Of a stretch of DNA of 64,000 nt, positions 39,174-52,817 are shown piece by piece. Made by a program: the position numbers and the translations under genes. The notes beneath the pieces are model-generated. The model was not told the DNA's origin. It saw only the letters and a program-made list of their open reading frames with translations, and did no database searches. Every line of letters begins with the position of its first letter. Positions within the stretch are counted from its first letter, which is position 1. Source of the stretch: an uncultured Bacillota bacterium (GTDB taxonomy: Bacteria; Bacillota; Clostridia; Oscillospirales; Oscillospiraceae); contig CANEFX010000007.1 in assembly GCA_947426945.1 (NCBI GenBank), positions 1-64,000 on the forward strand, written 5' to 3'.

Positions 39174-40322
39174 TTACTCCGACATCAGCAGTTTGCTGAG
39201 CATCCGGCTGAAGATGCCGGGGACGGACAGGCGCTCCACCCCCTGGGAGGCCAGGATTGGGACGGTGTCCCGCAGCTCGTCCCCCACATAGACCTCCAGA
39301 CTGCCCAGGGTCTGGCCCGGCTCCACCGGAGCCTCCACGTCCTGGGCCAGGGTGAGGCGGGTGGTGACCTGGTTCTCCTCCCCCTTGCGGACCAGGAGGC
39401 GGCAGTCCCGCTCCAGGCGGGGCTGGACCTGGCTCCGGGCGCCCAGCAGAACGTCCACCGGGGCCAGAGGGGCGTCCGGGTAGACGGGCACCAGGGTGTA
39501 GCTGGCAAAGCCGTAGTTGAGAAGGGCCTTGGCATCCTCAAAGCGCTGGCTGATCGAGGGGGATTTCATCACAACCGCGATAAGCTCCATGCCGTCCCGC
39601 TCGGCGGTGGCCGACATGCAGTATTTGGCGGAGCTGGTGTAGCCCGTTTTCAGTCCGGTGGTCCCCTGGTAGAAGCGGACCAGATGGTTGGTGTTGGTCA
39701 GACCGAATTCCCCGTTGCGGATGGAGTCCATCCAGATGGTGGTGTAGTCCCGGATCTTGGGGTGGTTTAAAATCAGCTCCCGGGACATGAGGGCGATGTC
39801 ATAAGCGGAGGTTACATGGCCCTGAGCGGGCAGGCCGGTGCAGTTGAGAAAGGTGGTGTCCGCCATGCCCAGCTCCCGGGCGCGCTGGTTCATTTGGGCC
39901 ACGAAGGCCCCCTCGCTGCCGGCCAGGTGCTCGGCCAGAGCCACGGAACAGTCGTTGCCAGAGACCACGGTGACGCACTTGATCATCTCGGACACCGACA
40001 TCTGCTCCCCCTCCTCCAGGTAGACCTGGGAGCCCCCCATGCCGGCGGCGTAAGCAGAGACGGTAACCATGTCGTCCAGGCCGATCCGGCCCGCATCCAC
40101 CGCTTCCATGACCAGCAGAAGGGTCATGATCTTGGTGACGCTGGCCGGCTCCAGCTTCTCGTGGGCGTTGTCCTCCAGAAGGATGGCGCCCGTCTCCTTT
40201 TCCATCAGCACGCAGGAGGCGCAGGACAGGTTCAGCCCCGCGTCCGCCGGGGACGCTCCGGCCCGGGGGACGCAGAGAGTCAGCGTAAGGGCGGCCAGCA
40301 GAAATGACAGGGATTTTTTCAT
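39174..40322 (-). CDS. D-alanyl-D-alanine carboxypeptidase (DacF-like PBP)
   Basis: The 382-residue exported enzyme has a signal peptide (KKSLSFLLAALTLTLCVPRAGA). The three penicillin-binding motifs are SVTK (nucleophile Ser), SGN (SGNDCSVALAE) and KTG (GLKTGYTSSAKYC). A C-terminal PBP5-type domain and an amphipathic anchor at the end (SRMLSKLLMSE) follow. It trims pentapeptides of peptidoglycan. In spore formers DacF acts in cortex formation, but the paralogue cannot be told here. ATG 40322 follows AGGAGGAATCC. A much longer upstream reading, through 40964, crosses phage genes and is rejected. Confidence 0.93.
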   Translation of the reverse strand: MKKSLSFLLAALTLTLCVPRAGASPADAGLNLSCASCVLMEKETGAILLEDNAHEKLEPASVTKIMTLLLVMEAVDAGRIGLDDMVTVSAYAAGMGGSQVYLEEGEQMSVSEMIKCVTVVSGNDCSVALAEHLAGSEGAFVAQMNQRARELGMADTTFLNCTGLPAQGHVTSAYDIALMSRELILNHPKIRDYTTIWMDSIRNGEFGLTNTNHLVRFYQGTTGLKTGYTSSAKYCMSATAERDGMELIAVVMKSPSISQRFEDAKALLNYGFASYTLVPVYPDAPLAPVDVLLGARSQVQPRLERDCRLLVRKGEENQVTTRLTLAQDVEAPVEPGQTLGSLEVYVGDELRDTVPILASQGVERLSVPGIFSRMLSKLLMSE

Positions 40323-40545
40323 AAAGGATTCCTCCTGATCCATGAATTTGCGGGTATGGTCAGGATGTGGAGCGGACGGTTTTTCTATTCCTGCCGCCCA
40401 AATGGAAATTTTTTCAAACAAAGGACAGTGTAGCGGACCGAAAGGGAGAATGGTAGCGAAACGTGGGGAGAAAAAATTTTTTGTTGGATGCACCGGGATG
40501 TACAACTTTTGCCCCCCGGCGGCCGGGGGTGTAAGGAGGGATGAG

Positions 40546-40845
40546 GTGGCGACAAAGGCTGTGAGGCTCCCGGACAGGGAGCAGATCATCAGGCAGATGT
40601 GGAGACTGGCTACCGCCGGGGCGGGGGACGCCGTGAAGCTGGCCTGTTCTCCCCCGGAGGACTGGGGGGAGACGAAAAAGCTGGAGCTGGACGCGCTGAC
40701 TGAGTTCAAGCGGGGAAGCAACGGCGTGGTGGAGCTGAAATTTGTGGACCGGGGGCGGCTGCTGGAGCGGCTGCTGGATACGGTGGACCACAGCGGCGAG
40801 GTCCAGGTGGAGCGCTTCCTCCAGGCGATGGAGGGGGAGAGCTGA
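40546..40845 (+). CDS. Small phage packaging protein (possible terminase small subunit)
   Basis: The 99-residue protein starts at GTG 40546 behind AAGGAGGG: VATKAVRLPDREQIIRQMWR. It is helical, with a C-terminal TVDHSGEVQVERFLQAMEG. Its stop is directly followed by the large terminase ATG, the usual place of a small subunit, although I cannot show homology. A GC-rich hairpin, CCCCCGG and CCGGGGG (40512-40528), lies just before the ribosome site. The preceding 223 bases, shared with the dacF promoter side, show no clear promoter for the cluster. Confidence 0.55.
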   Translation: MATKAVRLPDREQIIRQMWRLATAGAGDAVKLACSPPEDWGETKKLELDALTEFKRGSNGVVELKFVDRGRLLERLLDTVDHSGEVQVERFLQAMEGES

Positions 40846-42096
40846 ATGGTGTTTTCCGAAAAACAGAGGCGGGCGCTTACCTGGTGGCGGCCCGGCTCCC
40901 CCGACCGGGGGCGGCAGGCCATTATCTGCGACGGGGCGGTGCGCAGCGGAAAGACGCTGTGCACCGGCCTGTCCTTCTTCTGCTGGGCTATGAGCGGGTT
41001 TCAGGGCCGGAGCTTTGCCCTGTGCGGGCGGACCATCCAGTCGGTGCGGCGCAACCTCCTGTCGGAGACGCTCCCCCTGCTGGAAAAGATGGGGTTCCGG
41101 TGTGAGGAGAAGGTGAGCAGAAACGTGCTCCAGGTCCGGCTGGGAGGGCGGCGAAACACCTTTTATCTCTTCGGGGGGAAGGACGAGAGCTCCGCGGCCC
41201 TGATTCAGGGCATTACCCTGGCCGGGGCCCTGCTGGACGAGGCGGCGCTGATGCCCCGGTCCTTTGTAGAGCAGGCCGCCGCCCGGTGCTCGGCGGCGGG
41301 GAGCAGGCTGTGGTTTTCCTGCAACCCGGAGTCGTCGGCCCACTGGTTTTATCAGGAGTGGATTTTAAAGGCGGAGGAGAAAAACGCGCTCCACATCCAC
41401 TTTACCATGGAGGACAACCCGGGGCTGTCCGAGGAGGTGCGGGCGCGGTATGCCAGCACCTTTCAGGGAACCTTCTACCGCCGGTTTGTGCTGGGGGAGT
41501 GGGCGGCCGCCGAGGGGCTGGTGTACGACTTTTTCGACGAGAGCTTTGTCAGGGACGTGCCCGAGGGGCCCTTCGGGGAGTGGTACGTCTCCTGCGATTA
41601 CGGCACCTCCAACCCCACGTCCATGGGACTGTGGGGGAGAAAGGACGGGGTGTGGTACCGGGTGGCTGAGTACTACTACGACGCCCGGGCCGCCCGGCGG
41701 CAGAAAACCGATGAGGAGTACGCCGACGACCTGGAGGGGCTGGCCGGGGACAGGCCCCTCCGGGCGGTGGTGGCCGACCCGTCGGCGGCCAGCTTCTGCG
41801 AGACCCTGCGGCGGAGAGGCCTGCGGGTGAAAAAGGCGGACAACCAGGTGGTGTCCGGCATCCGCCTCACCGCCCGGCTGCTGAAAAGCGGGAAAATGGT
41901 GATCTGTAAGAGCTGCGGCGACGCGATACGGGAGTTTGCCCTCTACCGCTGGGACGAGCGGGCGCTGGGGCAGGACCAGGTGCGCAAGGAGCACGACCAC
42001 GCTATGGACGAGATCCGGTACTTCGCCGCCACCGTGGCCGGGAGGGAGGGCCGGGGCGGGGTGTTCGCCGGGTGTGTGGAGAGAAACGTATTTTGA
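40846..42096 (+). CDS. Phage terminase large subunit
   Basis: The 416-residue protein has the ATPase Walker A-like CDGAVRSGKT and Walker B GALLDEAALM, followed by the coupling motif FSCNPESSAHWFY. The C-terminal RNase-H-like nuclease has its acidic residues in VSCDYGTSNPTS, VVADPSAASFCE and KEHDHAMDEIRYF. All catalytic positions seem intact. It resembles the PBSX XtmB group. It pumps DNA into the prohead, so the cluster should still be able to package DNA. Confidence 0.93.
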   Translation: MVFSEKQRRALTWWRPGSPDRGRQAIICDGAVRSGKTLCTGLSFFCWAMSGFQGRSFALCGRTIQSVRRNLLSETLPLLEKMGFRCEEKVSRNVLQVRLGGRRNTFYLFGGKDESSAALIQGITLAGALLDEAALMPRSFVEQAAARCSAAGSRLWFSCNPESSAHWFYQEWILKAEEKNALHIHFTMEDNPGLSEEVRARYASTFQGTFYRRFVLGEWAAAEGLVYDFFDESFVRDVPEGPFGEWYVSCDYGTSNPTSMGLWGRKDGVWYRVAEYYYDARAARRQKTDEEYADDLEGLAGDRPLRAVVADPSAASFCETLRRRGLRVKKADNQVVSGIRLTARLLKSGKMVICKSCGDAIREFALYRWDERALGQDQVRKEHDHAMDEIRYFAATVAGREGRGGVFAGCVERNVF

Positions 42097-42111
42097 AAAA
42101 GGAGAGCTGAC

Positions 42112-43248
42112 ATGAAGTGGTGGAGACAGAAGCGGCGGGAGCCCCCCGCAGCCGTGGTGCAGGTGCGGCGGGAAGAGGGACACCCCTTTGGAGCGGTGGA
42201 CCGGTACGTCCCCCTGCGCACCGGGGAAATCGCCCTGTACCGGGCTATCCGGGAGGGGGTGCCCGTTGTGGACGCCGCGGTCTGGAAGCTGGTGCGGCTG
42301 TGCGGCGGGGTGCGTGCGAAATGCGCCGGCCGGGCCGCTCAGGAGGGGCTGGAGGAATTTTTCCGCACTGTGGACGCGGGCTGGGGCCAGCGGGGAATAC
42401 AGGCCTTTCTGGACCGGTATCTGGACGACATGTTTACCTGCGGGCACGCTCTGGGGGAGATTGTGCTGAGTTCCGACGGGAAGGAGATTGCCGCCGTGCT
42501 GTGCGCCGACCCGGAACAGGTGGAGGTGAGGCTGGGGGACAGCCCTCTGGACTTTAAGCTGTGCCGGGCGGGACTGGGGGAGGGAAGGGAGCTGCCCTGG
42601 CAGGAGCTGCTGCTGTTTACCCCCTTTCAGCCCACGGGGGACGCCCCCTGCGGGGTGTCGCTGCTGCGGTCCATGCCCTTTATGGCCGGAATCCTGCTGA
42701 AAATTTTCCAGGCCACAGGACAGAACTGGGAGCGGGCGGGGAACCTCCGCTTTGCCGTGGTGTGCAGGCCCGGAGAGGGGGAGGAGGCCTTTGCCCAGGA
42801 GCGGTGCAGCCAGATCGCCCGGGAGTGGAGCGCCGCCATGCAGGCCGGGCGGGAGGGCTCCGTCCGGGACTTTGTGGCCGTGGGGGATGTGGACATCCGG
42901 GTGATCGGGGCGGACAGCCCCGTGCTGGACAGCCAGGTGCCGGTGCGGCAGATTCTGGAGCAGCTGGTGGCCCGGACGGGAATCCCGCCCTTTATGCTGG
43001 GGCTGTCCTGGTCCTCCACCGAGCGGATGAGCGCCCAGCAGGCGGATATGCTCACCACCGAGATCACCGCCATCCGCCGGATGGCGGAGCCCGTGCTGTG
43101 CCGGACGGCCGAGCTGTGGCTGCGGCTCCACGGCTTCGGGGAGAAGGCGGAGATCGTGTGGGAGGACATCAACCTTCAGGACGCGGTGGAGGAGGCCAGA
43201 GCAGAGCTGTATCGGGCTCAGGCCGAAAAATTGAGGAGGGAAGCATGA
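42112..43248 (+). CDS. Phage portal protein
   Basis: The 378-residue protein has the portal plan with TGEIALYRAIREGVPVVDAA near the start, DRYLDDMFTCGHALGEIVL, and the C-terminal RTGIPPFMLGLSWSSTERMSAQQADM typical of phage portals. It forms the dodecameric DNA gate of the head. ATG 42112 follows AAAGGAGAGCTGAC. Its stop overlaps the start of the protease gene (ATGA), so the two are co-translated. Confidence 0.88.
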   Translation: MKWWRQKRREPPAAVVQVRREEGHPFGAVDRYVPLRTGEIALYRAIREGVPVVDAAVWKLVRLCGGVRAKCAGRAAQEGLEEFFRTVDAGWGQRGIQAFLDRYLDDMFTCGHALGEIVLSSDGKEIAAVLCADPEQVEVRLGDSPLDFKLCRAGLGEGRELPWQELLLFTPFQPTGDAPCGVSLLRSMPFMAGILLKIFQATGQNWERAGNLRFAVVCRPGEGEEAFAQERCSQIAREWSAAMQAGREGSVRDFVAVGDVDIRVIGADSPVLDSQVPVRQILEQLVARTGIPPFMLGLSWSSTERMSAQQADMLTTEITAIRRMAEPVLCRTAELWLRLHGFGEKAEIVWEDINLQDAVEEARAELYRAQAEKLRREA

Positions 43249-44129
43249 AAATTGTGAAGGAAGCTGCAGGAGGGGAGCGCGCCGCCGTTTCGGCGCAGGA
43301 TCTGGAGCTGATCGGGGCGCTGGCCCGGAAGCCGTTGGAGCAGAAGGAGGTGTATACCTTCTCTGTGCGGCTGTGTGACAATGAGATCGACCGGGACTTT
43401 GAGCGCTTTACCGTCCCGACCCTGGAGCGGCTGGCCCCCATGTTTGTGGGAAAGGCGGGCATCTTTGACCACCAGTGGTCGGCCCGGGGGCAGGCCGCCC
43501 GTATCTATAAGACAGAGCTCGTCCGGGAGCCGGAGCGGCTCACCCGGGCCGGAGACGGCTACTGCTGGCTGAAGGGATATGCCTATATGGTGCGCACCGA
43601 GGGTAACCGGGAGCTGATTGCCGAGATCGAGGGGGGTATCAAAAAGGAGGTCAGCGTGGGGTGCGCGGTGGAGCACGCGGTATGCTCGGTCTGCGGCCGG
43701 GACCGGTCACAGGCCGACTGCGGCCACGAGAAGGGACTGGAATACGAGGGCCGGCTGTGCTGGGCCGACCTGGAGGGGGCGGTTGACGCCTATGAGTTCT
43801 CCTTTGTGGCCGTACCCGCCCAGCCCGCCGCCGGCGTGGTGAAGGGAGCCTGCTTTGGGTCCGCCGCCCGGCTGGAGGAGGAGGCCGCCCTGGGCAGGAA
43901 ATATCTGGAGAACCTGCGGGGCGAGGTGGTCCGGCTGGCCCTGCTGGCCGACCGGGAGCTGGATGGCAGGGCAATGAAGTCGCTGGCGGACAAGCTGTCT
44001 CACCGGGAGCTGGAGGAGCTGCGAAAGTCCTACGCCCGCAGAGCCGGGGAGCGGTTTCCCCTGAAAACCCAGCTGAGCTATGAAAACAGAAGGGCCGGAG
44101 ATGAGGAAAACCGGGCGTTTTTGGTATGA
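43245..44129 (+). CDS. Prohead protease-like protein (XkdF-type)
   Basis: The 294-residue protein has the HK97-type protease plan: DNEIDRDFERFTVPTLERLA, His in GIFDHQWSARG, Ser in KKEVSVGCAVEHA. A zinc-finger-like CSVCGRDRSQADCGHEKG and AYEFSFVAVPAQPAAGV follow. A helical C-terminus may act as the scaffold. It would mature the capsid. ATG 43245 overlaps the portal stop. The zinc-like insert is not usual in the best-known proteases. A longer upstream reading lies in the shadow of the portal gene and is rejected. Confidence 0.8.
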   Translation: MKIVKEAAGGERAAVSAQDLELIGALARKPLEQKEVYTFSVRLCDNEIDRDFERFTVPTLERLAPMFVGKAGIFDHQWSARGQAARIYKTELVREPERLTRAGDGYCWLKGYAYMVRTEGNRELIAEIEGGIKKEVSVGCAVEHAVCSVCGRDRSQADCGHEKGLEYEGRLCWADLEGAVDAYEFSFVAVPAQPAAGVVKGACFGSAARLEEEAALGRKYLENLRGEVVRLALLADRELDGRAMKSLADKLSHRELEELRKSYARRAGERFPLKTQLSYENRRAGDEENRAFLV

Positions 44130-44239
44130 GAGAACGACAATCCTCAGTCAGCGACAGAACCGCTGACAGCTTCTTTGCCAAAAGAGCCTTTCCGTCTGCG
44201 GGCGGGATGAGAGAGCTTTTAAAACAGGAGGAATGAAAT
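44130..44239. repeat. Half of a palindromic repeat between protease and capsid genes
   Basis: CAATCCTCAGTCAGC and CCGCTGACAGCTTC resemble, in reverse orientation, the outer part of the element at 23985-24164. It is the only sizeable gap in the head module. The capsid ribosome site (ACAGGAGG) is at its end. Confidence 0.45.
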
Positions 44240-45253
44240 ATGGCATATTATTACGACAATCTGAAGCTGGACAAGGGGATGTACCGGGAGGCGGGCCGCT
44301 CCTTCAGCCAGGTGCTGGAGCGGGAGGACCCCAGCGAGCGGTACAGAGGCACCAGCCTGGAGGGGCTGGACGCCTTTCAGCGGCAGCTGAAGCGGTTTGA
44401 TATCAAGGTGAAGGGGGAGGGCAGCGACCCGGTGGAGGCCTTCTTCCGCACCTCGGACACGGCGGTCCTTTTCCCTGAGTACATCGCCCGCACCGTGCGC
44501 CAGGGCATGGAGGAGGGGGATATCCTCCCCAACATCACCGCGGCGGTCACGAAAATCGACGGGATGGATTACCGCTCCATCACCTCGGAGGCCGGAGGCG
44601 AGGAGAAAAAGCTGAAGCCGGTGAGCGAAGGGACGGCCATCCCCTCCACCACCATCAAGGTGCAGGCCAACCTGGTCAAGCTGAAAAAGCGGGGGCGGAT
44701 GCTGGTGGCCAGCTATGAGGCGGTGCGCTTTCAGAAACTGGATCTGTTCTCCGTCACCCTGCGGCAGATTGGCGCCCACATTGCCCGCACCCACCTGGAG
44801 GACGCGGTGGACGTGCTCATCAAGGGGGACGGCAACGAGAACGCCGCTGCCGTGACCACTGTCGCCGCGGGCAAAGCCCTGGATTACGACGCTTTGGTGG
44901 ATTTCTGGGCCAAATTTGACCCCTATGTGATGAACACGCTGCTGGTGTCGGGCGACGTGATGCTCCAGCTGCTCAAGCTGCCCGAGTTCCAGAATCCCCT
45001 CACCGGGCTGAACTTCCAGGGCACCGGCAAGCTGACCACCCCGCTGGGGGCCGCCCTGCTGCGCACCGGCGTGTTGCCCGCCAAGACCGCCGTGGGCCTG
45101 GACCGGCGCTTTGCCTTGGAGATGGTCCGGAGCGGCGACGTGACGGTGGAGTATGACAAGCTTATCGACCGGCAGCTGGAGCGGGCGGCCATCACCACCA
45201 TCAGCGGCTTTGCCAAGGTGTTTACCCAGGCCAGCCGGGTGCTGAAGGTGTGA
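44240..45253 (+). CDS. Phage major capsid protein
   Basis: The 337-residue protein reads like an HK97-fold capsid: an N-terminal arm with Glu/Arg-rich helices (AGRSFSQVLEREDPSERYRG), then SDTAVLFPEYIARTVRQGME, the central TTKVQANLVKLKKRGRMLV-like region, VDVLIKGDGNENAA and a C-terminal ALEMVRSGDVTVEYDKLIDRQ. ATG 44240 follows ACAGGAGGAATGAAAT. Its place after the protease and before connectors is standard. It should form the shell of a small head. Confidence 0.88.
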   Translation: MAYYYDNLKLDKGMYREAGRSFSQVLEREDPSERYRGTSLEGLDAFQRQLKRFDIKVKGEGSDPVEAFFRTSDTAVLFPEYIARTVRQGMEEGDILPNITAAVTKIDGMDYRSITSEAGGEEKKLKPVSEGTAIPSTTIKVQANLVKLKKRGRMLVASYEAVRFQKLDLFSVTLRQIGAHIARTHLEDAVDVLIKGDGNENAAAVTTVAAGKALDYDALVDFWAKFDPYVMNTLLVSGDVMLQLLKLPEFQNPLTGLNFQGTGKLTTPLGAALLRTGVLPAKTAVGLDRRFALEMVRSGDVTVEYDKLIDRQLERAAITTISGFAKVFTQASRVLKV

Positions 45254-45254
45254 G

Positions 45255-45620
45255 ATGACACAGGAAATTTTAGCCCTGTGCCGGGCGATGGGGGCCGCTG
45301 AGGACCAGGAGGAGCTGCTGCTCCCCCTGGTCCTGGCCGCCGAGGAGCAGCTGGCCCGGCGGCTGAAGGAGGGAACGGCCCCCGAGGACTGCGGGACGGC
45401 ATTTCCCCTGGCCGCGGCCATGGCGGCGATGGACCGGCTGTCCGGCGTGACGAGCGGCGGGAGCGCCGGGGAGGTGACCTCCTTTACCGCCGGGGATCTG
45501 ACCATCCGGAGACAGGCCGGAAGCGGCCGGCGCGGAAAGGGCCTGTCCGGCCGGGCGGAGGAGCTGCTGGCTCCCTGGCTGGAGGACAGGGGATTTGTAT
45601 TTCAGGGGGTGAAGGGATGA
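45255..45620 (+). CDS. Phage head-tail connector (gp6-like)
   Basis: The 121-residue helical protein (MTQEILALCRAMGAAEDQEE, AEEQLARRLKEGTAPEDCG, a central Ala-rich FPLAAAMAAMDRLSG) has the length and pattern of gp6-type head-tail connectors, which continue the portal ring. Its start lies one base after the capsid stop and its stop overlaps the next start (ATGATG). The family is inferred mainly from order and shape. Confidence 0.65.
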   Translation: MTQEILALCRAMGAAEDQEELLLPLVLAAEEQLARRLKEGTAPEDCGTAFPLAAAMAAMDRLSGVTSGGSAGEVTSFTAGDLTIRRQAGSGRRGKGLSGRAEELLAPWLEDRGFVFQGVKG

Positions 45621-45937
45621 TGGAGCGGCTGTGGGCCGATATTCTGGCCCGCTTTGGGCAGGACGTGGTTCTGCGGGGAGAGGAGACGGTCTTTTGCCGG
45701 GCCATGGTCCAGCCCTGGCTGGACCGGGAGAGCGAGCAGGAGACCGCCTCCCCCCTGGGGCGGGGGCGGCGGGACCGGTTCCGCTATCTGGGCCCCGCCG
45801 GACATCCCCTGGACCTGGACACTCTTGTGGAGTGGAAAGACGGGGAGTACCGGGTGGGGAGCGCCCACCTGGTGGGGGAGGGAATCTGCCCCCACTGGAG
45901 GGCTGTGCTCTATCCCAGAGAGGAAGTGTTGCCGTGA
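45617..45937 (+). CDS. Phage head-completion/joining protein (XkdH-like)
   Basis: The 106-residue protein, MMERLWADILARFGQDVVLR, then a beta-rich middle and HLVGEGICPHWRAVLYPRE, fits small head-tail joining proteins (gp16/XkdH). It overlaps the genes on both sides by four bases. Assignment rests on order and size as much as on sequence. Confidence 0.6.
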   Translation: MMERLWADILARFGQDVVLRGEETVFCRAMVQPWLDRESEQETASPLGRGRRDRFRYLGPAGHPLDLDTLVEWKDGEYRVGSAHLVGEGICPHWRAVLYPREEVLP

Positions 45938-46437
45938 GCGTAGGAGTGGAAAAAATCAGACGAAAAATGGCGGACTATCTCAACGGCCAGGGCGTTCCCG
46001 CCGTGACCGCCTTTCCGGCGGCCCTCCGGCGGGAGGAGACGGCTCCTGTGGCGGTGGTATCCCTCCGGGGGTGCAGGACCGGGAGCTCCGGCTTTCAGAA
46101 TTACCTGGGGGACCGGTATCTGGAGGAGACGGGCCGCTGGGAGGAGCGGTACGGCCACCGGGCCGAGCTCACCTTCGGTCTGGACCTCTACGCCCCGGAG
46201 CGGGGGGACGGAGAGGCTTTGCAGCGGGCCTTTGACGCCCTGGCCGGAGCCCTGCTCACCGGCGGACCGGAGGGTATGGAGCTGAAGGAGCTGTCCTGCG
46301 GGGAGACCGTCCGGGACGGGGACAGCCGGAGGCTGAAACGGCCTGTGGCGGCCGTCTTTACCCTTTATCTTACCGCCGCAGTGGATGCCGGCGGCGTATT
46401 TACCGATTTTGAATTGCGAGGTGTGGCAAAAGCATGA
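45934..46437 (+). CDS. Phage minor tail protein (XkdI-like)
   Basis: The 167-residue protein starts at GTG 45934, which overlaps the previous stop (GTGA): MSVGVEKIRRKMADYLNGQG. It has an alpha/beta pattern with ELTFGLDLYAPERGDGEALQ and ends with TDFELRGVAKA. This is the usual tail-terminator-like position directly before the sheath gene. A longer reading of the same frame from 45631 lies inside the previous gene and is rejected. Confidence 0.6.
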   Translation: MSVGVEKIRRKMADYLNGQGVPAVTAFPAALRREETAPVAVVSLRGCRTGSSGFQNYLGDRYLEETGRWEERYGHRAELTFGLDLYAPERGDGEALQRAFDALAGALLTGGPEGMELKELSCGETVRDGDSRRLKRPVAAVFTLYLTAAVDAGGVFTDFELRGVAKA

Positions 46438-47492
46438 GTATTACCGTACATCAGCGCCCGGGAGTCTACTCCTCCTACGACGCGTCAGGCCTGGTCAGCG
46501 GCAGCGATACCGGCCGGCTGGTGGGACTTGCGGGCATCAACACAAAGGCCCCGGCGGGAAAGGTGCAGATGGTTACCAGCTATGACCAGGCGGTCACCCT
46601 GTTTGGCAGCCAGGGGGACGAGGGCATGGCGGAGCTGATCCGCCTGGCCCTGAAAAACGGGGCCTCCGGCGTGGCGGCGGTTCCGCTGGGGAGTGCGGAG
46701 GGCTATGAGGCGGCCTTCGCCGCGATCGCCGAGGTGGAGGATATCGCGCTGGTAATCTGTGACAGCACCGATCTGGCGGTGCAGAAGAAGCTGCGCAGCA
46801 GCGTTGCGGAGGCCTCCGGCCAGCGCAGGGAGCGGCTGTGCGTGGCGGCAGGGGCCAAAAATGAGAGTGTGGAGCAGCTGATTGCCCGGGCCAGGGAGCT
46901 CAACCACGAGCGGGTGATATTGGTGGCCCCCGGCGGCGTGGACGGCGGGGGGCAGCCGGTCTCCGGACTGGGGCCGGCCGCCGCCGTGGCCGGGGCCGTG
47001 GCCGGGGAGAAGGACCCGGCCGTCCCCCTTGGGGGCGCGGAGCTGAAGGGGCTGAACGGCCTGTCCGCCCGACTGGGGGACAGGGATATCGACCTGCTGG
47101 TCCTGGGGGGCGTGACACCGCTGGAGAGCCTGGGCGGTGTGGTCAGCGTGGTGAGAGGAGTGACCACCCGCACCACCACGGGGGGCGCACCCGACGCCGC
47201 ATGGCGGGACCTGTCCGCAATCCGGGTGGTGGACGACATCATTCCCGGACTGCGCAATGCCCTGCGGGCCAGGTTCCGCCGGGCCAAGAACACCCCGCAG
47301 AGCCGGGGGGCCATTCGCTCCCAGGTGGTGCTGGAGCTGGAAAACAAGCTGGCCCGGGAGATCATCACCGGCTACGACGGAGTGAGCGTCTCCGCCGACA
47401 GCGAGGACCCCACCCGGTGTCTGGTGGATTTCTCCTTTGCCGTGGCCCACGGCCTGAACCAGATCTGGCTGACGGCGCACATTACCGTTTAA
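46434..47492 (+). CDS. Contractile tail sheath protein
   Basis: The 352-residue protein resembles XkdK-type sheaths: N-terminal VHQRPGVYSSYDASGLV, central Rossmann-like part with RVILVAPGGVDGGG, and the conserved C-terminal sheath domain (VVRGVTTRTTTGGAPDAAWRDLSAIRVVDDI, NTPQSRGAIRSQVV and ISFAVAHGLNQIWLTAHITV-like end). It forms the contractile outer tube. The presence of this gene makes the particle myovirus-like. Confidence 0.9.
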   Translation: MSITVHQRPGVYSSYDASGLVSGSDTGRLVGLAGINTKAPAGKVQMVTSYDQAVTLFGSQGDEGMAELIRLALKNGASGVAAVPLGSAEGYEAAFAAIAEVEDIALVICDSTDLAVQKKLRSSVAEASGQRRERLCVAAGAKNESVEQLIARARELNHERVILVAPGGVDGGGQPVSGLGPAAAVAGAVAGEKDPAVPLGGAELKGLNGLSARLGDRDIDLLVLGGVTPLESLGGVVSVVRGVTTRTTTGGAPDAAWRDLSAIRVVDDIIPGLRNALRARFRRAKNTPQSRGAIRSQVVLELENKLAREIITGYDGVSVSADSEDPTRCLVDFSFAVAHGLNQIWLTAHITV

Positions 47493-47504
47493 GGAGGCAA
47501 GACG

Positions 47505-47894
47505 ATGAGCATTCCAGGATTTCCTACCAGCAGCGACATCTATCTGGAGGCGGATGGCATGCGGGTGGCGGTAGTGCAGAGTTACGCAGCCAGGACCGCC
47601 AAGAGCAGCGTGGCGGTGGAGGCATTCGGAGAGTCGGAGCCGGTGGCCACCTCTCCCGGTCAGGCCAGCCATGTGATCGAGCTGAGCCGGCTGTACGCCA
47701 CCGACCAGGCCATTCGGGACGGCCTGAATTTTTATGAGATGAAGGACTTCTCCCTGGTAATCTGCAAGCCGGACCGGAAGGTGATCTACTCGGGCTGTCA
47801 GTGGAGCTCCATCCAGGAGAGCGCCAGCATCGGAAGTATGGTGCTGGAGAAGGTCTCGCTGGTGGCCTCCCGGCGCATTGAGGTACAGACATGA
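47505..47894 (+). CDS. Tail tube protein
   Basis: The 129-residue protein follows the sheath directly, as tube proteins do. It is beta-rich with YLEADGMRVAVVQSYAA, a surface loop and KVIYSGCQWSSIQES, and ends with VSLVASRRIEVQT, fitting an XkdM-like inner tube subunit. ATG 47505 follows AAGGAGGCAAGACG. Its stop overlaps the next start. Confidence 0.85.
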   Translation: MSIPGFPTSSDIYLEADGMRVAVVQSYAARTAKSSVAVEAFGESEPVATSPGQASHVIELSRLYATDQAIRDGLNFYEMKDFSLVICKPDRKVIYSGCQWSSIQESASIGSMVLEKVSLVASRRIEVQT

Positions 47895-48313
47895 CCGGGG
47901 TGCAGGACGGATGGACCCTGCGGGCCCTGCCGGCGCTGGAGCTGCTTCAGGCCCGAAGAGAGGCAGCGGAGCTGGCGGCGGACAGGCGGGAGCGGGCGCT
48001 GTGCGCCAACGCCTGCCTTCTGGCCAGGGCGCTGGCGGATCAGGAGAGCGGAGAGTCCGTGTTCCCGGACGGCAGGGCGGTGCTGGCCGGACTGACGGCA
48101 GAGGAGATCGGCGATCTGGCCGCCCGGTGGAGCGCTTTCCGCCGGGAGAGGGACCCGGTGCTGGCCCGGCTGTGTCCCGGCTGCCGGAGCAGAGTGCTGG
48201 AGGAGGGATGTCCGGTGTGCGGCCGGGAAAAAAGCGGAGAAGAGGAGATTGTAAACCCCTCATTTGACATGGGACGGTTCTCCGAGCTGAGAGGGGGAGG
48301 AAACGCTGACTGA
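47891..48313 (+). CDS. Tail assembly chaperone-like protein with zinc ribbon
   Basis: The 140-residue protein is in the position of gpG-type tail chaperones. The first 100 residues are helical, followed by a four-Cys knuckle (CPGCRSRVLEEGCPVCGRE) and FDMGRFSELRGGG. Near its end the downstream frame is open from 48291 and GGGGGAG lies at 48293-48299. This is like the GGGGGCG at which phage Mu makes a minus-two frameshift in the same gene pair. The zinc knuckle is not typical for gpG. Confidence 0.65.
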   Translation: MTGVQDGWTLRALPALELLQARREAAELAADRRERALCANACLLARALADQESGESVFPDGRAVLAGLTAEEIGDLAARWSAFRRERDPVLARLCPGCRSRVLEEGCPVCGREKSGEEEIVNPSFDMGRFSELRGGGNAD

Positions 48314-48848
48314 CTATCTGGAGGAGGCCCTGGAGGGGCTGGAGAGTATAATAAGGCGGCTGTGCAGGTCCGAGTCATCTGTAGAGGACAGAGAGAGAAA
48401 TGTGTTGAATTCTTTATATGCTGAAAAGGAACAGATATATTCAGCGGGAAAAAACCGAAACGTATCCAAAAATTTAAATAAGGTTTACCTGCCGGATTTT
48501 TCTATAAACCAAAATTTAAATAAAGTTTACAATTTGAATGAAAAAAGAATTTTCCGGCAGGGAGAGGCCGGACCCGGGGACGTGGGCAGGGCGGCTGTCC
48601 GGCAGCCGGAGCCGCAGGAGGCGCCCGCCGGCGGAGCCTGGGGCGAAAACAGAGATTTGGGTTTTCCGTCCGGACCCTCTGTGGCGGAGCGGATGGCGGG
48701 GCTCGAAGGAGCGGATCGGGCGGCGGAGAGCGTCCCCGCGGCCGTCCTGCCGGCGGCGTCCGGAGAGGGGATAGAGTGGGCGGAGCAGGCCGACCGGGCC
48801 TTCCGCAGGGACAGCCGCCGGTATGACGGGGGGTTCTATTTGTACTGA
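48291..48848 (+). CDS. Variable helical protein or frameshift extension where a tape measure is expected
   Basis: The frame open from 48291 reads EGEETLTDYLEEALEGLESI, contains twice an NLNKVY motif about twenty residues apart, and ends DRAFRRDSRRYDGGFYLY at 48848. There is no ATG with a ribosome site at its start. CTG 48306 or GTG 48402 are the only initiators, or it is made by a minus-two (or plus-one) shift from the 47891 gene. It occupies the place of the tape measure but has at most about 185 residues. Confidence 0.55.
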   Translation, partial: EGEETLTDYLEEALEGLESIIRRLCRSESSVEDRERNVLNSLYAEKEQIYSAGKNRNVSKNLNKVYLPDFSINQNLNKVYNLNEKRIFRQGEAGPGDVGRAAVRQPEPQEAPAGGAWGENRDLGFPSGPSVAERMAGLEGADRAAESVPAAVLPAASGEGIEWAEQADRAFRRDSRRYDGGFYLY

Positions 48849-48861
48849 GGAGGGAAAGCTG

Positions 48862-49449
48862 ATGGATCTGTCGCCCATGCGCTATAAGGGCTATACCTGG
48901 CCCCATAACCCCAGAATATACTCCATTGATTTTCAGCGGGCTGTTGCGGTGCACAAAATCCCTTTCGGCCGTTACCAGCTCCAGGACCTGGGGATGGAGC
49001 ACCGGGTGATGAAGGGGGCGGGCGAGTTTGTGGGAGAGGGGGCCTATGCCGAATTTCAGAAGCTGGCCTGTCTGTTCTATGAGGGAGGGACAGGCCTGCT
49101 GGTCCATCCCCTGTGGCAGGCGGCGGACGCCTATTTTGTAGCCCTGCGGCTGGAGCAGACCCCCAGGCCCGGCTATGTGCGGTACTCCTTTGCGTTTTGG
49201 GAGGAGGCCGTGCGCTATCGGGGGGTGGCGGAGAGAGCGGCTGAACATGTGGCGGCGGCCGTCCGGGGCGCGGCGGAGGAGCCGGCCCGGACCGCCGCCC
49301 GGGCCGGGTATCACCGGGTGGCGAAGGGGGATACCCTGTGGGGGATTTCCAGGCGCTACGAGGTGGGGCTGAAGGAGCTGATTGCCCTGAATCCCCAGAT
49401 TAAAAATCCCAATCTGATCTATGTGGGACAGGAGGTGCGGGTGCGTTGA
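48862..49449 (+). CDS. Tail protein with LysM domain (XkdP-like)
   Basis: The 195-residue protein starts at ATG 48862 behind GAGGAGGGA: MDLSPMRYKGYTWPHNPRIY, then VHKIPFGRYQLQDLG and a beta-rich N-terminal domain. The C-terminal LysM (YHRVAKGDTLWGISRRYEVG, NLIYVGQEVRVR) binds peptidoglycan. This is the gp53-like tail-tube-initiator/baseplate wedge found after tape-measure genes in PBSX-type tails. Its stop overlaps the TTG start of the next gene. Confidence 0.85.
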   Translation: MDLSPMRYKGYTWPHNPRIYSIDFQRAVAVHKIPFGRYQLQDLGMEHRVMKGAGEFVGEGAYAEFQKLACLFYEGGTGLLVHPLWQAADAYFVALRLEQTPRPGYVRYSFAFWEEAVRYRGVAERAAEHVAAAVRGAAEEPARTAARAGYHRVAKGDTLWGISRRYEVGLKELIALNPQIKNPNLIYVGQEVRVR

Positions 49450-50396
49450 CCGCCTATATGACCGACGCGGCCGGGGGAAGCTGGGTTCTGCCCGCGCCGC
49501 TGGCCTGGAGAATGGAGTACACCGCCGGGGTCCCCTGCGACAGCTTCTGGCTGCGCTGCGGCTGGGACACGGACAATTCGGTGAGGCCGGGGGAGTGGAC
49601 GGGCTTTTGGGCGGGGCACCAGGGGGAGCGGGTGTTTACCGGCGTGGTGGACGAGTGCGAGGCGTCGGTGAATGCCTCCGGCCGCCTGCTGGAGGTTTCC
49701 GGCCGGGGGATGGCGGCTCTGCTGCTGGATAACGAGGCCCTGGGGGAGGACTATCAGTCGGCCACCCAGGCGGACATCCTCCGGGACCATGTGACGCCCT
49801 ATGGGATTGTCGCCGCACCGGGAGGGCGGCTGCCCCCGGTGTCCCGCTTCTCGGTAGCGGCCGGGAGCAGCGAGTGGTCGGTGGTCTATGATTTTGCCCG
49901 GTATTACGGCGGGGTATCCCCCCGGTTCGACCGGCAGGGGCGGCTGGTGCTGTCCGGCTGGGACGACGGGCGGGAGCGGGTGGTGGACGCCGCCGCCCCG
50001 GTGATCTCCATGGTCCGGCGGGACAGGCGCTACGGCGTGCTGTCTCAGGTGCTGGTGCGGGACCGCTGGAGCGGCCGGACGGAGCGGGTGGAAAACGCCG
50101 CCTTTTTAAAAGCCGGGGGCCGGGCCCGACGGGTGATTACCATGCCGGCCCGGAGCAGCTATAAGGCCATGCGGTATTCCGGAAGGTTTCAGCTGGAGCG
50201 GTCGGCCTCAGAGCAGGAACGGGTGGAGATTACGCTGGGAGAGGCCTTCTGCATCTGGCCGGGGGACCTGGTGAGCGTGGAACGGAAGGACTGGGACTGG
50301 AACGGCCGCTACCGGGCCGCTCAGGTGACGGTGGGAATGGACGCAGGCGGCTATTGGAGCCGCGTGGAGCTGGCCAGGCCGGATTTTGTGGTATGA
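49446..50396 (+). CDS. Tail hub/late control protein D-like (XkdQ)
   Basis: The 316-residue protein begins at TTG 49446, behind GGAGGTGCGGG and overlapping the previous stop; ATG 49458 is an alternative. It has the gpD/gp27 hub fold pattern: LTDNEALGEDYQSATQADIL-like region (LLDNEALGEDYQSATQADIL), VVYDFARYYGGVSPRFDRQG and VVDAAAPVISMVRRDRRYG. It should form the hub between tube and spike. XkdQ assignment rests on order and pattern. Confidence 0.78.
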   Translation: MTAYMTDAAGGSWVLPAPLAWRMEYTAGVPCDSFWLRCGWDTDNSVRPGEWTGFWAGHQGERVFTGVVDECEASVNASGRLLEVSGRGMAALLLDNEALGEDYQSATQADILRDHVTPYGIVAAPGGRLPPVSRFSVAAGSSEWSVVYDFARYYGGVSPRFDRQGRLVLSGWDDGRERVVDAAAPVISMVRRDRRYGVLSQVLVRDRWSGRTERVENAAFLKAGGRARRVITMPARSSYKAMRYSGRFQLERSASEQERVEITLGEAFCIWPGDLVSVERKDWDWNGRYRAAQVTVGMDAGGYWSRVELARPDFVV

Positions 50397-50436
50397 TCCG
50401 GGCCGGGCGGCACAATGACGGGATGAGGTGAGAAAA

Positions 50437-50826
50437 GTGTGGACAGCGGAGCGAAATCGAAACCCGCGCGCCTGTGAGCCGGCGGCGGAGCTGGGGGCCG
50501 TGACCCTGGGCGGAGATCCGGCCGGGGTCAGCCTGGGGGGAGAGCGGCGGTGGATCAATGTGTACAGCCCCGGCGGCTACAGCTGGCGGCCCGCAGCGGG
50601 GGACCGGGTGCTGGTGCTCAAAACGGGAGCGGAGGGGGAGGTCCCCTGCCTGCTGGGTACGCCCCAGAGGGATACGGAGCTGGGACCCGGCGAGGTGCGG
50701 CTGAGAGGGGGAGAGAGCGCCATCCTTCTGGGCCGGGAGCGCCTGGAGCTGGAGGGGGAGCTGTATCTCAACGGCCGGCCGCTGCGGGACGTGATACGGG
50801 AGATTGTAAAGGCCTTGCTGTCATAA
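50437..50826 (+). CDS. Baseplate spike-like OB-fold protein
   Basis: The 129-residue protein has an OB-fold-like middle (NVYSPGGYSWRPAAGDRVLVL, VPCLLGTP) and a beta-helical tail (EVRLRGGESAILLGRERLEL, ELYLNGRPL), as in gp45/gpV spikes that pierce the target membrane. GTG 50437 is placed 6 bases after GAGGTGA; a GTG at 50428 lies within that site. The order hub, spike, gp25-like is standard. Confidence 0.7.
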   Translation: MWTAERNRNPRACEPAAELGAVTLGGDPAGVSLGGERRWINVYSPGGYSWRPAAGDRVLVLKTGAEGEVPCLLGTPQRDTELGPGEVRLRGGESAILLGRERLELEGELYLNGRPLRDVIREIVKALLS

Positions 50827-50839
50827 GGAGGGGACGGAA

Positions 50840-51184
50840 ATGGAGTGGAAGCTGAGCCGGGGGGACTATGTGCCCGACGGCGCGGGCGGGCTGACCGCCC
50901 TGAGCGGAGGAGAGGAGCTGCTGGCCCGGGTGCTGTTCCGCCTGACCGCCCGGCGGGGGGCGCTGCCCTTTCTGCCTGAGCTGGGCAGCCGGCTGTATCT
51001 GCTGGGACGGGAGAGACCCTCCGCACGGCAGGCCCTGGCCGTCCAATATGTGACCGAGGCCCTCCGGGAGGAGGAGGGGCTGTCGGTACAGAGGGTGGAG
51101 CTGGCTGAGGACGGGGAAGCGGGCTGGCTGACCGTATATCTGGACTGGCGGGGGGAGGAGCTGACGGCCCGGCTCAGGGTGTAA
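50840..51184 (+). CDS. Baseplate wedge protein, gp25/GpW-like (XkdS)
   Basis: The 114-residue protein has the gp25-like core FRLTARRGALPFLPELGSRL, YVTEALREEEGLSVQRVEL and ends in a strand. gp25 members are lysozyme-like-fold wedge proteins that trigger sheath polymerisation. ATG 50840 follows AAGGAGGGG. It is 11 bases before the baseplate J gene. Confidence 0.85.
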   Translation: MEWKLSRGDYVPDGAGGLTALSGGEELLARVLFRLTARRGALPFLPELGSRLYLLGRERPSARQALAVQYVTEALREEEGLSVQRVELAEDGEAGWLTVYLDWRGEELTARLRV

Positions 51185-51195
51185 AGGAGATAAAA

Positions 51196-52251
51196 ATGAA
51201 AACTGCAGACGAGATTTATCAGGAGATGCTGGCCGGCTTCGGGGCACGGACGGGGCTGGAGCCCCGGGAGGGCTGCGACCTGTCCGCCCGGCTCTACGCC
51301 GCGGCCGCCCAGGTGTGCGCGCTGTATATTCAGGCGGACTGGGTGGTCCGGCAGGCCTTTCCCCAGACGGCGGAGGGGGAATACCTGGATCTCCACGCCA
51401 GGCTGCGGGGACTGGAGCGCAAAAAGCCGGTGACCGCCCGGGGGACGGTGCGCTTCCGGGTGGAGGAGGCCTCCGACGTTCCCAGGAGCATCCCAAAGGG
51501 GACAGTGTGCATGACGGCGGGACTGATTCGCTTTGAGACGGAGGAGGACGCCGCTCTGGCGGCAGGCGGGCTGACAGCTGACGTTCCGGTTCGGGCGCTG
51601 GAGGCCGGGGCGGCGGGCAATGTGGCCGCCGGGACCATCGTGTCCATGGCGGTGGCGCCCATGGGGATCGCCGCCTGCTCCAACCTCCAGGCCTGCGCCG
51701 GAGGCGCGGACAGGGAGGAGGACGCTTCCCTGCGGGAGCGGGTGCTGGATACCTTTAAACGGCTGCCCAACGGGGCGAACGCCGCCTTTTATGAGAAGGA
51801 AGCCCTGTCCTTTGACCAGGTGGCCGCCGCGGCGGTGATCTCCAGGCCCAGGGGGGTGGGGTCGGTGGACGTGGTGCCCGCCACGCTGGCCGGGGCGCCC
51901 GACGGGGCGCTGCTGAAGCAGCTCCAGGACTATTTTGAGCAGCGGCGGGAGATCGCCGTGGACGTGAAGGTGCGGGCGCCCGAAACGGTGACGGTGCATG
52001 TCCGGGTCCAGGTGAAGCCGGAGGAGGGACGGAACGGACAGGAGGTGCTGGACCGGACGGCGGCGGCGGTCCGGGGCTGGTTTACTGGAAAGCTGCTGGG
52101 ACAGGATATCCTGCTGGCCCGGTTGGGCCACCTGGTCTACAGCTGCGACGGGGTGGCCAATTACGAGATTCTCTCTCCGGCGGCGGATATTTCCGTGGCC
52201 AGGGACCGGCTGCCCGTGCTGGGGACGCTGAGCGTGGAGGCGAAAGCATGA
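51196..52251 (+). CDS. Baseplate J-like protein (XkdT)
   Basis: The 351-residue protein has the baseplate J pattern: QADWVVRQAFPQTAEGEYLDL, ARLRGLERKKPVTARGTVRF, IPKGTVCMTAGLIRFETEED, then RERVLDTFKRLPNGANAAFY and PRGVGSVDVVPATLAGAP. It forms the baseplate wedge that joins the sheath. Its stop overlaps the start of the last gene. All domains appear intact. Confidence 0.92.
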   Translation: MKTADEIYQEMLAGFGARTGLEPREGCDLSARLYAAAAQVCALYIQADWVVRQAFPQTAEGEYLDLHARLRGLERKKPVTARGTVRFRVEEASDVPRSIPKGTVCMTAGLIRFETEEDAALAAGGLTADVPVRALEAGAAGNVAAGTIVSMAVAPMGIAACSNLQACAGGADREEDASLRERVLDTFKRLPNGANAAFYEKEALSFDQVAAAAVISRPRGVGSVDVVPATLAGAPDGALLKQLQDYFEQRREIAVDVKVRAPETVTVHVRVQVKPEEGRNGQEVLDRTAAAVRGWFTGKLLGQDILLARLGHLVYSCDGVANYEILSPAADISVARDRLPVLGTLSVEAKA

Positions 52252-52817
52252 GCTACGCCCGGTATCTGAGAGACCTGCTGCGTCCCCTGGGGGTCTATAA
52301 TCTGGAGGCCCCCTTTAATGGCGGGGAGCTGGATGTGCAGGGGGAGGCCCTGGACGGGGTGTTGGCCCGGCTGGAGGAGATACAGCGGGAGACCTCTTTG
52401 ACTACGGCGGAGAGCTGGGGACTGGAAAAGACCGCCTCCCTCTTTGCACGCCGCCCGGTGGCCGCCCAGCCCAGACAGCTGGCCGCCGCCCTGGCCGCTC
52501 TGCTGCGCATCGGCGGAGACAGCTTTACCTTGGCCGCCATCAACGATACCATCTCCGGCTGCGGCGTTCCGGCCGTGGTGAAGGAGCTGGCAAGGGAACA
52601 GGTGTCCGTCTCCTTCCCCGGTGTGGCCGGGGAGCCGGACAGCTTTCAGGAGCTGAAAAAAATCATTGAGGATATCCTCCCCGCTCATCTGGGAATTGAG
52701 TACGATTTCTGGTACCTTACCTGGGCGGAACTGGAGGCCAGCTTCCCCAGCTGGCGGTCCATTGAGGTCCTGGACCTGTCCTGGGAGAAGCTGGAGACCG
52801 CCGTAGAGTATCTGTAA
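52248..52817 (+). CDS. Tail protein I-like (XkdU/YmfQ)
   Basis: The 189-residue protein begins MSYARYLRDLLRPLGVYNLE and has the YmfQ/DUF2313 pattern with helical N-terminus, RQLAAALAALLRIGGDSFTL, and a C-terminal EDILPAHLGIEYDFWYLTWAEL. In PBSX it follows XkdT, before tail fibre genes. Here no fibre gene follows and the cluster ends in a hairpin. Confidence 0.88.
   Translation: MSYARYLRDLLRPLGVYNLEAPFNGGELDVQGEALDGVLARLEEIQRETSLTTAESWGLEKTASLFARRPVAAQPRQLAAALAALLRIGGDSFTLAAINDTISGCGVPAVVKELAREQVSVSFPGVAGEPDSFQELKKIIEDILPAHLGIEYDFWYLTWAELEASFPSWRSIEVLDLSWEKLETAVEYL

What the first reader, a model, noticed from the sequence alone, without database searches (positions are those of the whole stretch)
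40546..52817. Compact head plus contractile-tail cluster lacking all phage lifestyle genes: GTA-like candidate
The sequence shows an uninterrupted set of packaging, head and contractile-tail genes in 12.3 kb, with intact terminase ATPase and nuclease motifs, many ATGA or GTGA overlaps, and no integrase, repressor, replication, holin, lysin, fibre or attachment site. Host metabolic genes flank it. Known gene transfer agents and domesticated particles have this composition, and intact prophages do not. That it is a conserved transfer or delivery particle in this bacterial group is an inference.
Basis: partly seen in the sequence, partly recalled or inferred. Interest (0 to 1): 0.78.

Follow-up and report, generated by a model that had tools for sequence, protein, structure and literature searches.

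The report
Ancient gut-bacteria gene-transfer-agent-like cluster
A 12-kb set of phage-derived head, DNA-packaging and contractile-tail genes has been passed down vertically, one copy per genome, in an order of gut bacteria and looks like a gene transfer agent that packages host DNA, although no particle or transfer has yet been shown for it.

Summary
The cluster is real at 40546-52817: TerS, TerL, portal, protease/scaffold-like, capsid, connectors, sheath, tube, baseplate. No integrase, replication, fibre or lysis gene was recognised in it, and no att-like repeat. A single portal gene occurs in 55/61 genus, 57/150 family and 70/394 order genomes (a few split or partial copies); class and phylum samples gave no hit outside the order. 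Head and tail trees follow host rpoB (r 0.80/0.79). Cluster genes are under purifying selection. The left flank is constant in close relatives; three cluster-less relatives show a clean empty site. New here: the small terminase lacks its DNA-binding HTH (eight losses inferred in the order); a fast-evolving small protein with a constant C-terminal motif sits where a tape measure should be; sheath and tail genes are lost repeatedly while TerL, portal and protease are intact in 36/36 family loci. A 2026 paper reports GTA-like packaging in this family and a tailless FpGTA in Faecalibacterium, but no Oscillospiraceae cluster; this is a strong candidate. New variant of a known kind; DNA transfer is untested.

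The parts
40487..40511 (+). stem-loop-like palindrome GATGCACC-ggga-TGTACAAC plus TTTTG, ending 34 bp before the TerS start; imperfect in the window, covarying in relatives; attenuator or operator
   Evidence: pattern not found in the cluster-less sites inspected
40546..40845 (+). TerS-like small terminase subunit, 99 aa, without N-terminal HTH
   Evidence: alignment with relatives, 48 of 61 of which match PF03592 at E<=0.1; the window copy itself has no significant Pfam hit
40846..42096 (+). TerL, PBSX-family large terminase
42112..43248 (+). portal protein
   Evidence: phrog_30703
43245..44129 (+). head maturation protease/scaffold-like protein (position-based)
   Evidence: phrog_16951 of unknown function
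44240..45253 (+). major capsid protein
   Evidence: Phage_capsid_4, phrog_3922
45255..45620 (+). head-tail connector h1 (position-based)
   Evidence: conserved in order in relatives
45617..45937 (+). head-tail connector h2 (position-based)
45934..46437 (+). head-tail connector h3 (position-based)
   Evidence: phrog_25177 of unknown function
46434..47492 (+). contractile tail sheath
   Evidence: PF04984 and PF17482
47505..47894 (+). tail tube protein (mainly position-based)
   Evidence: phrog_27038 of unknown function and weak phrog_985
47891..48313 (+). XkdN-like gene with two CxxC motifs (position-based)
48306..48848 (+). small fast-evolving protein in the tape-measure position (probable CTG start), C-term RRDSRRYDGGFYLY; proposed mini tape measure
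   Evidence: no match in the phage collection
48823..49449 (+). LysM/DNA_circ_N protein (XkdP-like); likelier start ATG 48862
   Evidence: sequence
49446..50396 (+). baseplate hub (XkdQ-like)
   Evidence: phrog_177, weak PF22255
50428..50826 (+). XkdR-like baseplate protein (position-based)
   Evidence: phrog_25991 of unknown function
50840..51184 (+). baseplate wedge, GP46/XkdS-like
   Evidence: phrog_975, phrog_43
51196..52251 (+). baseplate J-like wedge protein
   Evidence: PF04865 1.5e-53
52248..52817 (+). Mu Gp48/XkdU-like tail protein, last gene of the cluster
   Evidence: phrog_521; PF10076 below its cut-off
39174..40364 (-). host flank, not part of the element: D-Ala-D-Ala carboxypeptidase (dacF-like); glycogen-synthesis-like genes follow
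   Evidence: same flank in close relatives

Best explanation
The locus is a host-domesticated, PBSX-type structural cluster working as a gene transfer agent. On some host signal the operon is expressed; a small capsid fills headful-wise by a TerL motor whose small subunit has lost sequence-specific DNA recognition, so random host DNA enters; a very short contractile tail, set by a mini tape-measure protein, is attached (sheath-less in some relatives); particles leave by lysis encoded elsewhere, or by a linked holin in some genera, and deliver DNA to kin. Shown here: gene content, kept catalytic residues, absent HTH, vertical inheritance, purifying selection, conserved left flank and empty sites. 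Inferred: expression, particle formation, random packaging, tail length, lysis, delivery and benefit.
For: Copy number by portal: 55/61 genus genomes, 26/31 of high quality; 57/150 family; 70/394 order. G099 and G527, G559, G570 had two partial matches on different contigs (G570 one full, one partial); the others one. Head proteins (TerL+portal+protease+MCP) vs rpoB, 30 genomes: Mantel r 0.80 (best of 2000 permutations 0.32), 16 of 27 splits shared (null maximum 3); tail vs rpoB, 28 genomes: r 0.79, 12 of 25. Median NG86 dN/dS 0.16-0.46 for each cluster gene with more than one usable pair, TerL and portal 0.17, against 0.12-0.21 for four host flank genes. In the 36 family loci fetched (of 57 carriers, chosen by contig), TerL, portal and protease are open over at least 80% of the profile in 36, MCP in 35; all 15 scored genes in 28. 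TerS without HTH in the window; eight losses inferred on the head tree; [quoted passage not shown] Clean empty sites. GTA-like packaging events in Oscillospiraceae (Onthomonas, 3 of 25) and Ruminococcaceae reported from faecal particles (PMC12946183, section 9).
Against: No particle, DNA or transfer data for this genus. No receptor-binding or lysis gene in the window's cluster. Presence is patchy (41/97 high-quality family genomes; 5 high-quality genus members lack it). HTH kept in 24 of 61 relatives, so those copies may still recognise a site. One strongly supported head/rpoB conflict. The right flank differs even within the genus and both flanks between most genera. All loci were found through the portal, so its presence proves nothing by itself; one of 62 order-wide loci, L249, has no TerS or TerL in its 20-kb stretch. 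PMC12946183 also ascribes some packaged Oscillospiraceae DNA (34.9-kb fragments) to generalised transduction by ordinary phages, and its GTA fragment sizes (8.4-8.9 and 4.6 kb) are given for other genera.
Confidence: 0.8

Rival explanations
1. PBSX-like bacteriocin particle: a domesticated contractile phage kept because it kills related strains, with DNA packaging a by-product that is not delivered.
For: Same gene order as PBSX (recalled) and PBSX-family terminase; PBSX packages 13.4-kb host fragments but is described as acting as a tailocin (PMC12946183).
Against: No fibre or receptor-binding gene recognised in the window's cluster; sheath missing in 4 of 36 family loci and found in only 2 of 20 other-family loci (L235 is cut by a contig end) while TerL and protease are kept in 36/36 and in 61 and 62 of 62 order-wide. 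A killing tail would predict the reverse.
Confidence: 0.12
2. Ordinary remnant of a prophage decaying in place, or several related prophages acquired separately.
For: Phage-derived genes, patchy presence, a large deletion in L139/L079 (one genome), internal stops in the portal of 2 of 57 family carriers (G003, G042).
Against: Single copy, tree congruence with rpoB, purifying selection, 28 of 36 family loci with all 15 scored genes; the 31 IMG/VR relatives are contigs of 4.0-18.1 kb.
Confidence: 0.04
3. Satellite or cargo-delivery particle that packages a specific DNA (its own locus or another element) rather than random DNA.
For: 24 of 61 relatives keep a TerS HTH.
Against: The window's TerS lacks the HTH; no replication or integration gene in the cluster. 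A partner locus was not searched for systematically.
Confidence: 0.04

Closest known systems
FpGTA of Faecalibacterium prausnitzii (PMC12946183, 2026)
   Same: By the paper's text: TerS without obvious DNA-binding domain, TerL, portal, head scaffolding and capsid genes; no replication genes; [quoted passage not shown] Gut Bacillota of, I believe, the same order.
   Different: Described as podovirus-like, no tail seen by EM, 10.5-kb operon of ten ORFs plus a second 5.5-kb operon with baseplate, fibre and lysis genes; the window's cluster is one 12.3-kb contractile operon. Sequence homology could not be tested: no named Faecalibacterium sequence was at hand.
PBSX of Bacillus subtilis
   Same: Gene order from small terminase to XkdU-like gene (recalled); PBSX-family TerL (TIGR01547); PBSX packages host DNA.
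   Different: Region after XkdU (fibre, lysis) and a long tape measure are absent here (PBSX content recalled); vertically inherited order-wide family.
RcGTA/CcGTA of Alphaproteobacteria
   Same: About 14-kb head-tail core and HTH-less TerS (passages); vertical inheritance (recalled).
   Different: Different tail type (siphovirus-like, recalled); here sheath and Mu/PBSX-type baseplate.
Microcystis phage MACPNOA1
   Same: Portal and protease-like homologues at 31-32% identity.
   Different: A 42-kb phage with XerD-type recombinases and a 1437-codon tape-measure gene.

Membership tests
Gene transfer agent | phage-derived head-tail cluster without replication/integration genes | tested here: met
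Gene transfer agent | vertical, single-copy inheritance in a host lineage | tested here: met
   few partial second matches told above
Gene transfer agent | purifying selection on structural genes | tested here: met
   the tape-measure-position ORF had one usable pair only
Gene transfer agent | small terminase without specific DNA-binding domain | tested here: met
   no HTH in the window's TerS; HTH detected in 24 of 61 relatives, not in 37
Gene transfer agent | packages random host DNA, too little to hold its own cluster | not testable with these tools
   no particle data for this genus; GTA-like events in the family reported in PMC12946183
Gene transfer agent | delivers DNA to recipient cells | not testable with these tools
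   needs culture work
Gene transfer agent | dedicated lysis/release genes, often unlinked | tested here: inconclusive
   only holin family PF05105 searched, in 10 genomes: holin after the Gp48-like gene in G078, G074 (and, by similarity, G143, G089); the window genome's PF05105 holin lies in another prophage on contig C10
PBSX-like bacteriocin particle | host-recognition fibre in the cluster | tested here: not met
   none recognised in or just after the window's cluster; a fibre-like ORF by eye in L239 only, PHROGs match to a family of unknown function
PBSX-like bacteriocin particle | PBSX-family terminase | tested here: met
   TIGR01547
FpGTA lineage | sequence homology with FpGTA operon I | not testable with these tools
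Intact temperate phage | integrase, att sites, replication and lysis genes at the locus | tested here: not met

The most novel reading that the evidence does not exclude
One gene-transfer-agent lineage was fixed in an ancestor of families f1, f23 and f26 of this order (f1 Oscillospiraceae; f23 probably Ruminococcaceae), and both the window's contractile cluster and the tailless FpGTA of Faecalibacterium descend from it. The order is a natural series of phage-to-GTA conversion: under irreversible loss, the TerS DNA-binding domain was lost eight times and the sheath eight times on the tree, while the packaging machine was kept almost everywhere.
Probability: 0.5. Interest if true: 0.9.

Novelty: new variant of a known kind. 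Interest (0 to 1): 0.76.

Why it matters
GTA-like packaging of Oscillospiraceae DNA has been reported in human faecal particles without its gene cluster. This cluster is a testable candidate, present in cultured strains such as Flintibacter muris and Pseudoflavonifractor phocaeensis. It would make gene transfer agents an old, heritable feature of common gut Bacillota, and its repeated losses of the TerS DNA-binding domain let one test how a phage becomes a random DNA packager.

Tried and rejected
Decaying prophage: rejected on copy number, tree congruence, dN/dS and intactness. Conserved extra genes at the borders: an all-against-all of flank ORFs (the 40 largest groups viewed) showed TerS pieces and host-like genes; the group shared by L133, L134, L136 and L138 was recognised as a holin only later. 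Window-genome holin as part of the element: rejected; it lies on contig C10 with an amidase endolysin, a reverse transcriptase and an integrase. The PF05105 hits of G118, G064 and G528 lie on other contigs or far from the cluster; their regions were fetched but not analysed. Early guess that residues 1-68 of the 40342 ORF belong to TerS: rejected, since the conserved 'peptide' there is the translated palindrome and a ribosome site precedes GTG 40546. Faecalibacterium link: not testable, left as a hypothesis. Pfam and PHROGs gave no name to the tape-measure-position ORF and Rfam none to the stem-loop. Structure prediction of TerS was asked for four times; the machine was busy each time and nothing rests on it. 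That this cluster is not described in print rests on searches of an open-access library that lacks most subscription papers and preprints; three further searches had other aims. Supplementary files were not open to me.
Full report
WHAT IS THERE. The + strand from 40546 to 52817 carries eighteen genes with short gaps or overlaps: TerS, TerL, portal, a protease/scaffold-like gene, capsid, three connectors, sheath, tube, an XkdN-like gene, a small ORF at 48306-48848, a LysM/DNA_circ_N protein, hub, XkdR-like, GP46-like, baseplate J and a Gp48-like gene. Names rest on Pfam, PHROGs and NCBIfam matches, except those marked position-based in the parts list. The order equals that of B. subtilis PBSX from xtmA to xkdU; that comparison is from memory, as is the statement that PBSX continues with fibre and lysis genes. 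Host genes lie on both sides: a dacF-like carboxypeptidase and glycogen-synthesis-like genes to the left, a PilZ gene, tRNA-Gly, radical-SAM and TatD-type genes to the right.

WHO HAS IT. The portal served as marker. In the genus 55 of 61 genomes carry it (26 of 31 of high quality), in the family 57 of 150 (41 of 97; 45 of 106 genera), in the order 70 of 394 (68 of 315; 41 of 168 genera). A class-wide sample gave 8 of 391, all in the same order; a phylum-wide sample 1 of 299, the own genome. Carriers have one match each, except G099 and G527, G559 and G570, with two matches on different contigs, mostly partial; G570 has a full and a partial one, so a second partial copy or a strain mixture is possible. 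Named carriers include Flintibacter muris, Pseudoflavonifractor phocaeensis, Flavonifractor, Lawsonibacter, Intestinimonas and Oscillibacter records. Contig lengths identify G039 with P. phocaeensis An858 and G532 with F. muris DSM 110149, both listed as same genus. Among 50,697 phage records only five unannotated 'Bacteriophage sp.' scaffolds from human faeces and Microcystis phage MACPNOA1 match the portal. One scaffold, MT835508, carries RpoA, SecY and anaerobic ribonucleotide reductase genes, so it is bacterial chromosome. The 31 IMG/VR relatives are contigs of 4.0-18.1 kb.

VERTICAL INHERITANCE. For 30 genomes a tree of TerL+portal+protease+MCP agrees with rpoB (Mantel r 0.80, best of 2000 permutations 0.32; 16 of 27 splits shared, null maximum 3; of splits with at least 95% support 10 are shared, out of 12 in the head tree and 17 in rpoB, with one conflicting pair). 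The tail tree (28 genomes; two with few tail genes dropped) gives r 0.79 and 12 of 25 splits, no strong conflict. In a 62-locus head tree the 37 f1 loci form one clade (support 64), the 15 f23 loci one clade with four loci of unassigned family (90), and the 5 f26 loci one clade with one unassigned locus (96). f1 is Oscillospiraceae by the named records; that f23 is Ruminococcaceae is an inference.

SELECTION AND INTACTNESS. Median NG86 dN/dS in up to 35 close relatives (pairs with 0.05<dS<1.2) is 0.16-0.46 for each cluster gene with more than one usable pair; TerL and portal 0.17, MCP 0.19, sheath 0.30, baseplate J 0.29; four host flank genes 0.12-0.21. The tape-measure-position ORF gave one usable pair (0.48), so its selection is not measured. 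Of the 57 family carriers 36 were fetched at length, chosen by contig. In these, TerL, portal and protease are open over at least 80% of the profile in 36, MCP in 35, sheath in 30 (missing in 4, partial in 2), and all 15 scored genes (at 70%) in 28 (profiles built largely from the same loci). TerL Walker and nuclease acidic residues are kept in 61 of 61; Walker A has one T to S change and the residue after the last aspartate is D or E. Since loci were found by the portal, portal presence is by construction. Order-wide, TerL was found in 61 of 62 loci; L249 has neither TerS nor TerL in its 20 kb.

SITE. Of 28 close-relative loci with more than 2.5 kb left of TerL, 27 show the dacF-like gene there; L057 does not. 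To the right things vary. Of 12 genus stretches fetched a D-2-hydroxyacid dehydrogenase gene (PF02826) follows in three: G519 (adjacent), G524 and G528 (about 6 kb away); six (L288, L291-L295) share another set of neighbours; the window's own right neighbour, PilZ, was found in none. The dehydrogenase also follows the cluster in two other genera, G116 (about 0.6 kb) and G078 (about 4.5 kb). In cluster-less G555, G549 and G547 that gene and dacF are about 200-260 bp apart, with no cluster remnant seen and no palindrome; G505 shows the same at a contig edge. G548 (contig end) and G560 (no dehydrogenase found) were not informative. As the cluster is older than the genus, loss is the simpler reading.

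TERMINASE WITHOUT SITE RECOGNITION. Sixty-one TerS homologues were aligned (none found in L249). PF03592 Terminase_2 matches 48 of 61 at E<=0.1, not the window's. A profile of the N-terminal HTH, seeded with ten of them, finds it in 24 of 61: 8 of 37 in f1 and 16 of 24 elsewhere; not in the window. ORFs were taken between stops, so a sequencing frameshift could hide an HTH in single cases. Under irreversible loss the minimum over rootings tried is eight losses. [quoted passage not shown] see also PMC6854486, passages).

TAIL. Between the XkdN-like and LysM genes, where a tape measure is expected, lies a protein of roughly 75-285 aa, poorly conserved except for a TDYLEE-like start in many and a C-terminal RD(S/A)RRYDGGFxLY in most; the core motif RD[SA]RR[YF] is found in 27 of 33 family loci (misses L136, L153, L154, L161, L162, L165) and in 50 of 50 genome-contig loci with both neighbours. 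That it measures a very short tail is an inference from position. In 20 loci of other families the sheath was found in two (L230, L236; L235 is cut by a contig end): some keep LysM-to-Gp48 baseplate genes, others little beyond the head. The sheath needs eight losses under the same assumption. Loss of tail parts with retention of packaging genes speaks for DNA packaging as the selected function.

REGULATION AND RELEASE. The palindrome 40487-40506 with its T-run ends 34 bp before TerS. Anchoring on the right arm only, 65 of 106 distinct upstream regions passed the score; in them 68% of the 8 pairs are Watson-Crick at spacing 4, against 17-39% at spacings 2, 3 and 5-8, with paired changes such as GTTGCACC/GGTGCAAC (L149), TTTGCACG/CGTGCAAA (L144) and ATTGCACT/AGTGCAAT (L082). 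It may be an attenuator; the C. crescentus GTA is controlled by anti-termination (PMC11150451, passages). A holin follows the Gp48-like gene in G078, G074 and G143, and about 0.5 kb behind it in G089; PHROGs agrees for G078. The window's cluster has none.

KNOWN LITERATURE. PMC12946183 (abstract, sections 9, 10, 26 and passages) reports GTA-like packaging in Ruminococcaceae (17 of 25 events), Oscillospiraceae (Onthomonas, 3) and Christensenellaceae (3), a particle-forming FpGTA in Faecalibacterium with no identifiable tail, and a strong candidate operon in only one of the MAGs it searched, not the Onthomonas one. It also reports likely generalised transduction in Oscillospiraceae. The present cluster fits the gap; homology with FpGTA could not be tested.

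VERDICT. The finding is confirmed and its interpretation supported as far as sequence can go: a vertically inherited, selected, GTA-like packaging cluster, spread over the order, with a contractile and probably very short tail in this family. DNA transfer is unproven.

Noticed in passing
window 40487-40511 and relatives: Covarying palindrome plus T-run just upstream of TerS in 65 of 106 distinct upstream regions examined; attenuator or operator of the cluster.
   Followed up: partly
L266 1765-2322, L267 13693-14139, L138, L136: Phage_holin_4_1-type gene after the Gp48-like gene in four genera: a linked lysis gene in some members.
   Followed up: partly
G000 contig C10 (L268 4361-14150): A separate prophage in the window's genome: reverse transcriptase (RVT_1), holin, Amidase_2/lysozyme endolysin, integrase, with a fibre-like ORF and a possible DGR target judged by eye.
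   Followed up: partly
G000 contig C2 59241-59759 (L001): Another large terminase (PF03354), hence a further prophage-like region in the same genome.
   Followed up: no
L197 (MT835508), L199 (MT835769): GenBank 'Bacteriophage sp.' faecal scaffolds that carry this cluster or its head part; L197 holds rpoA, secY and nrdD, so it is bacterial chromosome filed as phage.
   Followed up: partly
L147, L157, L162: Family members whose cluster lost the sheath and most baseplate genes but kept packaging and head genes.
   Followed up: partly
L249 (G326): The only one of 62 loci with portal, protease, capsid and baseplate genes but no TerS or TerL in the 20-kb stretch; relocation or loss unknown.
   Followed up: partly
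L239 14052-14519: Fibre-like ORF by eye (no Pfam hit, weak PHROGs match of unknown function) after the Gp48-like gene in a sheath-less relative.
   Followed up: partly
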